Positions 34,688 to 37,480 of a stretch of DNA of 64,000 nt are shown here, piece after piece. Both the position numbers and the translations under genes were made by a program. Position 1 is the stretch's first letter, and each line of letters opens with the position of its first letter. The notes beneath the pieces are model-generated. The model was not told the DNA's origin and did not search any database. It was given only the letters and a program-made list of their open reading frames with translations. Source of the DNA: Thermodesulfovibrio sp. Its GTDB lineage: Bacteria; Nitrospirota; Thermodesulfovibrionia; Thermodesulfovibrionales; Thermodesulfovibrionaceae. The stretch is taken from contig DYFF01000020.1 in the NCBI GenBank assembly GCA_020725335.1, forward strand, positions 62,001 through 126,000, read 5' to 3'.

Positions 34688-34706
34688 ACCTCCAATTTAT
34701 TTCATC

Positions 34707-34781
34707 ATTCCAAGGCATTAAATGCCGAGGAATCTCCTCTTAATTTATATCTAAGAACAAGGCACTTAGGCCCTGCCTAAG
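34707..34781. repeat. Pair of small hairpins in the lipoprotein-hypE gap
   Basis: First hairpin: ATTCC...GGAAT outside, GGCATT/AATGCC inside (34707-34733). Second hairpin: CTTAGG/CCTAAG with loop CCCTG (34765-34781). Neither has a T-run in the direction of transcription. The layout resembles degenerate intergenic palindromes, but I see no second copy of these in the window. Confidence 0.4.
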
Positions 34782-34810: not shown

Positions 34811-35923
34811 TCAGCTTCCCTCTAAAAAAGCCTTTATTTCAACAGGTTCACTTTCCTTCATAGGACCTTCAGTGTTAATTTTATAGTATATAGGCGATTT
34901 AATAATGTTACTATTATATTCAAAATCACAAAATAGAGGAATCATTGTTTCACCAATTAACTTAAAATCTTTTTCACCTGCTGATTTTCTGTATATTTTA
35001 TATCCCTTAATCCATTTTTCAGAAACTTCTTTCCAAGAAAGATATACTCCCTGTTCATTAATTGCCCAGAAAACTTCTTCAGGCTTTGATGGCATAAAGG
35101 AATCAATAGGAATGGTTATATAAGTTCCCTTACTTTCTATATATGTTGATTCAGAATGGATGGAAGTGGTTATAACATAATTTATAGAATGACTTGTAAA
35201 GGCAGTTATGGTTGAATAAAGTAGCTCATCCAAAAAAAAGTTTTTATCTGTTGCACCTATTTTTACTCTTTCACCCTTTTGATTTATTCGGTAAATATTA
35301 TAGTAGTTTGATGAATTACTTATCTTCCATGAAAGCATAACTCCTTGAGGAGTTACTTGATGTCGAAGATTTTCGACTTCAGGTAATTTTAAAGGAGTTA
35401 TAACTGCTTCAGTGGGTTTGCTATAAATACCCTTTGGACGAATAGCAAAGATGCGGTATCTATAACTCTCTCCAAATGTAAAATTTTTATCTTCTAAGAG
35501 CGTTGTGTTTTTGTCATAATATCCTATAGTTTTTTTCTCACCTTTATTTTCTCTTTCAATTAAAAAACTTTCTATTTTTGCTTTCGCCTTTTCTGGATAG
35601 CTCCATGAGATTAAAATTTTATCATAGGTTGCTGATAAATTTAATTTCTCTACAGCCTCAGGTTGAAGATAATCTTCAAGAGTAGGATCCATTTTTCTAC
35701 CACAGGCAGAGAGGAGAAATAATGAAGTTAATATAAGTAGCCATATTGATGCCCTATTGAGCGATTTAGCTATTTTGGGGTAACAGTTCTTAACGAAGCG
35801 AAGCGTAAAAAAGCTGCAATTGTTTGAGCTCCGAAAGAGCGAGTTTTGCGGATTTAGCGTAGCGAGTTTAGAACTGTCCCAAAATAGCTCATAAGCGAAA
35901 TAGGGTATCAGCTTTTCTTTCAT
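34811..35923 (-). CDS. Fibronectin-III-like lipoprotein carrying an in-frame palindromic element
   Basis: A 370-residue product. The first codons (MKEKL) overlap the argH stop by four bases (ATGA). A 54-codon segment encoded by the palindromic element follows, then a lipoprotein signal core IWLLILTSLFLLSACG (lipobox LSAC, about residue 74). The mature part has three fibronectin-III-like modules, each with a WSYPEKAKAKIESFLIERE- or YKIYRKSAGEKDFKLIGET-like pattern. Removing the 162-base element joins MKEKL directly to IWLLIL, a textbook lipoprotein signal peptide. No ATG, GTG or TTG lies in frame between the element and the lipobox. Function unknown; an outer-membrane or periplasmic binding role is inference. 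The insertion lengthens the n-region by 54 residues and may impair export. Confidence 0.75.
   Translation of the reverse strand: MKEKLIPYFAYELFWDSSKLATLNPQNSLFRSSNNCSFFTLRFVKNCYPKIAKSLNRASIWLLILTSLFLLSACGRKMDPTLEDYLQPEAVEKLNLSATYDKILISWSYPEKAKAKIESFLIERENKGEKKTIGYYDKNTTLLEDKNFTFGESYRYRIFAIRPKGIYSKPTEAVITPLKLPEVENLRHQVTPQGVMLSWKISNSSNYYNIYRINQKGERVKIGATDKNFFLDELLYSTITAFTSHSINYVITTSIHSESTYIESKGTYITIPIDSFMPSKPEEVFWAINEQGVYLSWKEVSEKWIKGYKIYRKSAGEKDFKLIGETMIPLFCDFEYNSNIIKSPIYYKINTEGPMKESEPVEIKAFLEGS
35748..35909 (-). repeat. Palindromic element, copy 1 (inside lipoprotein gene)
   Basis: A 162-base imperfect palindrome. Arms pair as GATGCCCTATT with AATAGGGTATC (one G:T), AGCTATTTTGGG with its complement, and ACAGTTCT with AGAACTGT. 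Inner arms meet at an apical GCTC/GAGC hairpin (35828-35840). A homologous copy lies at 37318-37480 in the same orientation. Length is exactly 54 codons and one frame is open throughout, so it is translated as part of the lipoprotein. Confidence 0.88.
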
Positions 35924-37296
35924 CCCTTCAAACTTTTCCTCAAAAGCTTTATCTGCTCCTTAACACTCTTCTTCGAAGTGCTTCCATAGGAAATCTTTGC
36001 CTCAATTGAACCCTCTGGTGTTAGTATTCCATATACATCTTCATCAATTTTATCCGAAAAATTCTTCAACTCTTTTATGCTTAAATCTGTTATAGACTGA
36101 CCTTTTTCAATGCAGTAAAGCACAATTTTACCTGTTATCTCATGGGCAATTCTAAAGGCAACTCCTTGTCTCACAAGATACTCAGCAAGGTCTGTAGCGG
36201 TTATATATCCACCATGGCAGGCTTCTTTCATTCTATCTTTGTGGAATTTTATCTCAGGAAGCATTTCAGTAATTACTCTAAGGCTCGTGCTTACTGTGTC
36301 AATTGTATCAAAAAGGGGTTCTTTGTCTTCCTGCATATCTCTGTTATAGGTAAGCGGAAGCCCTTTCATTGTTGTTAACAGGGAAATCAAATTACCATAG
36401 ACTCTGCCTGTTTTACCTCTGATTAATTCTGCAGGGTCAGGATTTTTTTTCTGGGGCATCATACTCGAACCTGTTGAGAATCTGTCTGGAAGTTCAATAA
36501 ATTTGAATTCATCTGTTGCCCAGAGTATTATCTCTTCAGATAGCCTACTTAGATGCATCATGAGCATAGCACCTGAGAAAAGGACATCGCAAACAAAATC
36601 TCTGTCAGAGACAGCATCCATGCTGTTTGGAATTGGCAATTCAAAGCCTAATTCTTTTGCTGTAAAAAGTCTGTCTATTGGTAGGCTACTTCCTGATAAA
36701 GCACCTGCACCAAGGGGGCTTTGATTTATCCTTTTTATTGCCTCTTTTAGCCTTTGTCGGTCTCTTTCAAACATCCATGCATAAGCAAGAAGATGGTGAG
36801 CAAGAAGCACTGGTTGGGCTTTCTGTAAGTGGGTGTAGCCTGGCATAATTGTATCGATATTTTTTTCAGCAAGATTAACAAGAGTTTTTTCAAGTCCTGC
36901 TGTTAACTCTATTAATTCATTTACTTTTTTTCTCAGATAAAGTCTTAGGTCTGTTGCAACCTGATCATTTCTTGAACGAGCAGTATGAAGCTTTGCTCCT
37001 GCAGAGCCTGCTTTTTCAATCAAAGCTTTTTCAATGTTCATATGTATGTCTTCAAGCTCTTCTTTGAATTCAAACTTTCCCTCTTTGATTTCCTTTTCAA
37101 TTTCAGAAAGCCCCTTTAGAATCTGCTTTAGCTCCTTTTCTGTTATAATTGCTTGTTTGTATAACATCTTGGCATGGGCTCTGCTTCCCTCAATATCCTC
37201 CTGCCAGAGCCTTTTGTCAAAGGATATTGACTGGGAAAACTCCTCCAGTGTCTTTGCAGTGCCTTCCTTAAACCTACCACCCCAAGGTTTTTTCAT
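35920..37296 (-). CDS. argH: Argininosuccinate lyase
   Basis: The last enzyme of arginine synthesis, cleaving argininosuccinate to arginine and fumarate. The 458-residue protein has PWGGRFKEGT at the N-terminus, HTARSRNDQVATDLRL, MPGYTHLQKAQPV and the superfamily signature GSSMMPQKKNPDPAELIRGK (about residue 278). Length is normal. It is flanked on both sides by copies of the palindromic element. Its start has an AGGAGA ribosome site. Confidence 0.97.
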   Translation of the reverse strand: MKKPWGGRFKEGTAKTLEEFSQSISFDKRLWQEDIEGSRAHAKMLYKQAIITEKELKQILKGLSEIEKEIKEGKFEFKEELEDIHMNIEKALIEKAGSAGAKLHTARSRNDQVATDLRLYLRKKVNELIELTAGLEKTLVNLAEKNIDTIMPGYTHLQKAQPVLLAHHLLAYAWMFERDRQRLKEAIKRINQSPLGAGALSGSSLPIDRLFTAKELGFELPIPNSMDAVSDRDFVCDVLFSGAMLMMHLSRLSEEIILWATDEFKFIELPDRFSTGSSMMPQKKNPDPAELIRGKTGRVYGNLISLLTTMKGLPLTYNRDMQEDKEPLFDTIDTVSTSLRVITEMLPEIKFHKDRMKEACHGGYITATDLAEYLVRQGVAFRIAHEITGKIVLYCIEKGQSITDLSIKELKNFSDKIDEDVYGILTPEGSIEAKISYGSTSKKSVKEQIKLLRKSLKG

Positions 37297-37317: not shown

Positions 37318-37480
37318 AGATGCTTTGATAAGCGACTTATAAATCTTCTGGTAACAATTCCATACGAGCAAAGCGTAAAACAGCCGCAATTGTTTGAGCT
37401 CCTTGGGAGCGAGTTTTGCGGCTGTAGCGTAGCGAGTTCGGAATTGTCAGAAGATTTACTTGAAGCGACATAAAGCATCT
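37318..37480 (-). repeat. Palindromic element, copy 2 (between EF-G-like gene and argH)
   Basis: A 163-base palindrome homologous to copy 1. Arms are AGATGCTTT/AAAGCATCT (perfect), AAATCTTCTG with its complement (perfect), ACAATTCC/GGAATTGT (perfect) and CAGCCGCAA/TTGCGGCTG (perfect). The apex is GCTCC-TTG-GGAGC (37398-37410). The arms differ in sequence from copy 1 yet still pair, while unpaired stretches such as AATTGTTTGA are identical. It fills the gap between the two genes. Confidence 0.88.

What the first reader, a model, noticed from the sequence alone, without database searches (positions are those of the whole stretch)
35748..35923. The palindromic element is inserted in frame into a lipoprotein signal peptide
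The gene starts ATG AAA GAA AAG CT, overlapping the argH stop, and the hydrophobic lipoprotein core IWLLILTSLFLLSAC begins right after the element. Excising the 162 bases joins MKEKL to IWLLIL and gives an ordinary lipoprotein signal. The element adds exactly 54 codons with no stop and supplies no internal start codon. In-frame insertion of palindromes in coding genes is known from Rickettsia palindromic elements; I know of no such description for this lineage.
Basis: partly seen in the sequence, partly recalled or inferred. Interest (0 to 1): 0.75.

Follow-up and report, generated by a model that had tools for sequence, protein, structure and literature searches.

The report
Palindromic repeats inside bacterial signal peptides
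A dispersed hairpin-forming DNA repeat found only in Nitrospirota bacteria has inserted, reading frame intact, into the throw-away export tag of a lipoprotein, and has done the same in at least five other unrelated exported-protein genes, which suggests that export tags are safe landing sites for such repeats.

Summary
Confirmed, and it generalises. The window is from Thermodesulfovibrio. Lipoprotein gene 34811-35923 (minus) starts at an ATG overlapping the argH stop. 162 nt (35747-35908, 54 codons, no stop, no ATG/GTG/TTG) separate MKEKL from the hydrophobic core and lipobox. Syntenic orthologues in six Thermodesulfovibrio genomes have a short ordinary signal peptide. Three others carry the element at the same place; three more carry an unrelated repeat there. 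All seven insertions are in frame.

The element belongs to a family of 150-200 nt imperfect palindromes: 34 stem pairs, 24 with compensatory double changes; 3 copies in this genome, up to 31 in relatives. All 38 hits of its core motif in 84,980 GTDB genomes are Nitrospirota. Most copies are intergenic, but 12 read in frame straight into a signal-peptide core, in six unrelated genes. Proposed mechanism (inferred): in-frame insertion survives in the n-region because signal peptidase removes it.

New points: stem changes show no G-U preference, arguing for DNA-level upkeep rather than RNA selection; the element evolves about tenfold slower than neighbouring synonymous sites, without amino-acid constraint; no Y1/RAYT transposase in this genome. 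Closest precedents: Rickettsia palindromic elements and one Yersinia RU-2 fusion. No description for Nitrospirota was found.

The parts
34811..35923 (-). Lipoprotein CDS, 370 aa, fibronectin type III domain (PF00041), start ATG overlapping the argH stop
   Evidence: ORF; Pfam fn3 E 2.3e-9; AlphaFold model: residues 1-44 pLDDT<50, mature part mostly >90
35909..35923 (-). Original n-region start MKEKL (ATG plus 4 codons); ATGA overlap with argH
   Evidence: an ATGA junction in most orthologues
35747..35908 (-). Inserted segment, 162 nt = 54 codons, IPYFAYELFW...AKSLNRAS, no stop and no ATG/GTG/TTG
   Evidence: absent from six Thermodesulfovibrio orthologues
35747..35779 (.). Palindrome arm 1 (33 nt)
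35878..35910 (.). Palindrome arm 2 (33 nt)
35756..35909 (-). Match to the covariance model R1 of the element family
   Evidence: 154.9 bits, E 1.1e-38; copy was used in training
35702..35746 (-). Signal-peptide hydrophobic core and lipobox IWLLILTSLFLLSAC; lipidated Cys codon predicted at 35702-35704
   Evidence: Cys invariant in 15 orthologues
35920..37296 (-). argH, upstream gene with overlapping stop
   Evidence: Pfam Lyase_1 and ASL_C2
37327..37479 (-). Second copy of the element, filling most of the gap between an EF-G-like gene and argH
   Evidence: 132.7 bits, E 8e-33

Best explanation
A dispersed, non-coding, MITE-like palindromic DNA element of the Thermodesulfovibrionales inserted between the n-region and the hydrophobic core of the lipoprotein signal peptide without shifting the frame. 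Translation starts at the ATG that overlaps the argH stop and runs through the element, making a precursor with a 59-residue positively charged n-region. Lipidation and cleavage at the lipobox then discard the element-encoded peptide, so the mature lipoprotein is unchanged. This tolerance would explain why the same element, and other repeat families, are found in frame at this spot in several unrelated exported proteins. Shown by sequence: insertion, frame, empty sites, recurrence, family. Inferred: translation, export, cleavage, and the near-neutrality of the insertion.
For: Empty, syntenic orthologous sites in six congeners, and seven of seven filled sites in frame. No canonical start between codon 1 and the lipobox. 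The two element lineages at this site are read in different phases yet both stay open, so the frame rather than a particular peptide is kept. The same arrangement (short n-region, element, core) occurs in an L,D-transpeptidase, a second lipoprotein, a TPM-domain protein, a TPR protein and an amidase-like protein: 12 copies in six genes, all open through the whole element; none in the reverse orientation. Relatives lacking the element have ordinary short signal peptides for the L,D-transpeptidase. The last 20 residues before the core keep a net charge of +1 to +5 in ten fusions. Family covariation.
Against: No expression, proteomic or export data. A 59-residue n-region is long, and no signal-peptide predictor was available. 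Some fused copies in relatives (the ATG CCG CTC AAA motif of family-f2 elements) have an internal ATG near the core, so translation there may start inside the element. Low nucleotide divergence of the element suggests that it is not simply neutral filler. In the relatives of the second lipoprotein and the amidase-like gene, several sites without the element carry other repeats, so their ancestral signal peptide is not cleanly defined.
Confidence: 0.82

Rival explanations
1. The element is a regulatory RNA hairpin at the argH/lipoprotein junction: its mRNA structure controls translation or export of the downstream gene, and the open frame is a by-product.
For: Stable fold, strong covariation, and element divergence far below synonymous divergence of its neighbours.
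Against: G-U cells are not favoured over A-C cells (10 versus 22 of 952; 39 versus 70 in the larger set), unlike a stem selected as RNA. No Rfam family at gathering score in the window, only a sub-threshold chance hit. Most copies are intergenic beside many different genes, and six of 13 genomes have neither this element nor another repeat at this junction.
Confidence: 0.12
2. Translation of the lipoprotein starts downstream of the element at a non-canonical codon, so the element is only a leader.
For: Long n-regions are unusual; ATA or ATT initiation cannot be excluded from sequence.
Against: No ATG/GTG/TTG in frame before the lipobox. Unconstrained leaders would not be expected to stay in frame and stop-free in 7 of 7 orthologues with at least three different inserts, nor would all 12 signal-peptide fusions stay open through the element.
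Confidence: 0.05
3. The element-encoded peptide was domesticated as a functional extended signal peptide, selected for its amino-acid sequence.
For: Present in four species; positive charge kept near the core.
Against: Element pN 0.064 against pS 0.083, about equal. The two element lineages at the site encode unrelated peptides because they are read in different phases. AlphaFold confidence for residues 1-44 is below 50.
Confidence: 0.04

Closest known systems
Rickettsia palindromic elements (RPE; Ogata 2000, 2002; also reported from Wolbachia), as described in PMC2229807 and PMC10969869
   Same: 105-150 bp palindromic repeats carrying an open frame, intergenic copies plus in-frame fusions to protein genes
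   Different: Core motif found only in Nitrospirota; no clear insertion into the interior of a mature protein seen, fusions sit at N-termini and mostly before signal-peptide cores
Yersinia YPAL/RU-2 element in YPO1552 (Delihas 2007, PMC2759123, PMC2229807)
   Different: A single locus where the repeat itself makes part of the signal; here the element precedes an existing core, in several unrelated genes, with empty orthologous sites
REP elements with RAYT transposases (GTAG/CGTC-tagged repeats, PMC3733652)
   Same: Dispersed palindromic repeats
   Different: 20-40 bp versus 150-200 bp; no Y1 transposase found in this genome or in several others that carry the element
MITEs such as ERIC/RU-1, RUP and Correia elements (PMC2229807)
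   Same: Short, non-coding, terminal inverted repeats, intergenic preference; many relatives' copies end TAAGC...GCTTA
   Different: Parent transposase and target-site duplication not identified; outer arms are copy-specific but complementary

Membership tests
Rickettsia palindromic elements | Palindromic 105-150 bp repeat with an open frame | tested here: met
   154-position model; 129 of 151 copies open in at least one frame of one orientation, 14 of 151 in the other
Rickettsia palindromic elements | In-frame insertion in protein-coding genes | tested here: met
Rickettsia palindromic elements | Insertion also within mature protein bodies | tested here: not met
   No copy with long coding sequence on both sides in 185 copies; one candidate (L097) is obscured by masked bases
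Rickettsia palindromic elements | Sequence homology to RPE families | not tested
   RPE sequences not compared directly; the Nitrospirota core motif had no hit outside Nitrospirota in GTDB r220
REP/RAYT | Resident Y1 (RAYT-type) transposase | tested here: not met
   PF01797 absent from G000, G002, G004, and from G057 with 31 copies (a draft genome); present in some relatives
MITE | Terminal inverted repeats | tested here: met
MITE | Target-site duplication and parent transposase | tested here: inconclusive
   Outer arms are inverted and copy-specific; no recent empty site at single-base resolution; only Y1 transposases were searched
Bacterial lipoprotein signal peptide | Lipobox with invariant Cys after a hydrophobic core | tested here: met
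   LLSAC, Cys invariant in 15 orthologues
Bacterial lipoprotein signal peptide | Short n-region | tested here: not met
   59 residues here, against 2-16 in six orthologues without an insertion
Structured RNA family | Covariation with G-U tolerance; Rfam match | tested here: not met
   Covariation present but no G-U preference; no Rfam match at gathering score

The most novel reading that the evidence does not exclude
In this lineage the signal-peptide n-region is a general landing zone for repetitive DNA: palindromes and other repeat families insert there in frame and persist because signal peptidase removes them, and the palindrome is a DNA-level element (possibly a functional one, given its slow evolution) with an unidentified, non-RAYT route of spread.
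Probability: 0.5. Interest if true: 0.72.

Novelty: new variant of a known kind. Interest (0 to 1): 0.64.

Why it matters
Protein-coding palindromes are known mainly from Rickettsia and Wolbachia, where they enter protein bodies. Here an unrelated element in a free-living lineage enters, repeatedly and in frame, the one part of a protein that is thrown away. This gives a simple rule for where selfish DNA can hide inside genes, a possible source of long signal peptides, and a warning for start-site annotation of exported proteins. Culturable T. yellowstonii carries the insertion, so the idea can be tested.

Tried and rejected
The first motif pattern for copy counting was mis-specified and returned nothing. 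Rfam gave no match at gathering score and only a sub-threshold chance hit. Viral contigs and plasmids gave no match. A RAYT transposase as mover was tested and not found in key genomes. Peptide-level selection was tested on the element and not supported; the 'rest of gene' figure in that call came from unaligned codons and was replaced. Chance read-through was considered: orientation B has almost no open frames, which can explain the orientation bias, but not that fused copies sit directly before hydrophobic cores. A porin-like locus in G037 (L135/L338) looked like a non-signal fusion; on inspection the element supplies an ATG in frame with the signal core, and a later frameshift separates the signal from the mature protein; it is not counted among the six genes.

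Full report
Where it is. The window lies in a 1.80 Mb Thermodesulfovibrio genome. A same-genus genome in the search set (G002) is a single contig of 2,003,803 bp, the published length of T. yellowstonii DSM 11347 (PMC4319510). The gene is on the minus strand, 34811-35923, downstream of argH (35920-37296), with an ATGA start/stop overlap. It encodes a lipoprotein with a fibronectin type III domain.

The observation. Arms 35747-35779 and 35878-35910 form a 33-nt, 79% complementary inverted repeat; the strand folds at -53.2 kcal/mol with z -4.4. Deleting 35747-35908 (162 nt) joins MKEKL to IWLLILTSLFLLSAC. No ATG, GTG or TTG occurs in frame between the first codon and the lipobox.

Orthologous sites. 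The argH-lipoprotein junction was found in 13 Thermodesulfovibrio genomes including this one, and in related families. Six congeners have a short ordinary signal peptide (for example MR-FIAIALLSLILLTGC, MNRKT-LLLMFITFMFLTAC). Four (G000; G004, which is UBA2600; G002; G015) carry the palindromic element; three (G012, G009, G007) carry a different repeat with TCATTCCGAGCGAAGCGAGGAATCTC-like sequence. All seven run in frame from the overlapping ATG to the core. The elements of G000/G004 and of G002/G015 belong to two lineages that are read in different phases, yet both stay open. Genes of G004 and G002 are close (dS 0.23-0.27) while their elements are only 77% identical; G000/G004 elements are 93% identical although gene dS is about 1 or saturated. 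The neighbouring EF-G/argH gap shows both element types in tandem in G004 and single types in G000 and G002, so differential loss from a tandem pair is one reading; independent insertion or exchange between strains are others.

The family. Twenty-eight copies align into 34 pairs in five helices; 95.6% of cells pair and 24 pairs show double changes, far above shuffles and slid controls. The model finds 3 copies in this genome and 0-6 in congeners, and up to 31 in other families of the order. A core-motif scan of 84,980 GTDB genomes returned 38 stretches, all from records named Nitrospirae, Nitrospira, Nitrospiraceae, Thermodesulfovibrio or Thermodesulfovibrionales; viral contigs gave none. A search of plasmids gave none. 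Stem changes show no G-U preference: 10 G-T against 22 A-C cells among 952, and 39 against 70 in the larger set. That argues for upkeep of the palindrome as DNA, for example by template switching (PMC8794818), rather than selection on an RNA.

Generalisation. Among 185 distinct copies, most are intergenic. Copies that read through into long downstream frames were listed. With a test for a hydrophobic core within about 18 residues after the element, 13 hits were found in 181 copies in one orientation and 1 in 177 in the other. One of the 13 (L095) opens only inside the element and has its own start; the other 12 are open through the whole element. The single reverse hit opens near the end of the element and has its own start. 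The 12 fall in six genes: this lipoprotein (4 species), an amidase-like protein (3; no Pfam match, the name is a guess), an L,D-transpeptidase with LysM (2), a second lipoprotein (1, plus a further orthologue cut by a contig end, L318), a TPM-domain protein and a TPR protein. Start codons upstream of the element give n-regions such as MRNLPID and MKNLMS, and a TTG-initiated (M)REKVLVITG. Relatives of the L,D-transpeptidase gene without the element have ordinary short signal peptides (MRSLKLLKVLLLFLL); in the second lipoprotein and the amidase-like gene, several relatives carry other repeats in the same stretch. The orientation bias can be explained by open frames: 129 of 151 copies are open in orientation A and 14 of 151 in B. 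The count of independent events is small and the copies were not sampled at random, so no P-value is claimed for the preference for signal peptides.

Rate of change. At an orthologous copy outside the window (G000:C7, G004, G002) the element differs by 6-10% while adjacent genes have dS 0.35-1.1, so the element is conserved at nucleotide level. In the lipoprotein copy pN (0.064) is about equal to pS (0.083), so no amino-acid constraint is seen (few changes). This slow evolution is not explained by the discard model and may mean a DNA-level function or exchange between strains.

Mechanism and verdict. The best reading is a MITE-like palindrome that inserts widely and survives inside genes mainly where its peptide is later removed. 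Translation, export and cleavage are inferred. AlphaFold gives residues 1-44 (element peptide) pLDDT below 50 and a confident mature part. The mover is unknown; a Y1/RAYT transposase was not found in this genome. The finding is a new variant of protein-coding palindromes (RPE; Delihas RU-2), with no earlier description for Nitrospirota found in the open-access library searched, which does not hold most subscription papers.

Noticed in passing
37327-37479: A second copy of the element fills most of the gap between an EF-G-like gene and argH, so both junctions of argH carry one. In G004 the gap holds two tandem copies of different types and two extra ORFs.
   Followed up: partly
L074 1482-1652 (G000:C7), also L065 and L073: The nearest start codon before the conserved KGFILAAG of a nucleotidyltransferase-like gene is an ATG inside the element on its opposite strand (MSKDISGAKDSEFL...); conserved in three species.
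   Followed up: partly
L039, L040, L045 (lipoprotein junction in G012, G009, G007): Unrelated repeats (CATTC-GAG-CGAAG-GAATCTC type) are also in frame in the same signal-peptide n-region, up to 99 residues long.
   Followed up: partly
150 copies: The outermost arms beyond the shared core are copy-specific yet complementary to each other (mean longest match 6.2 nt against 4.2 for shuffled partners); the origin of these arms is unexplained.
   Followed up: partly
34706-34745: A sequence resembling the GAATCTC-type repeat lies just downstream of the lipoprotein gene, in the gap before a gene with AIRS domains.
   Followed up: no
L066 1470-1865 (G003): Between a murC-like and a murB-like gene the element lies in a 131-aa frame that starts inside the end of the first gene; whether it is translated is unknown.
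   Followed up: no
L338 (G037 porin-like gene): The element lies before a signal core with an ATG from the element in frame; a frameshift separates signal and mature parts, either a pseudogene or an assembly error.
   Followed up: partly
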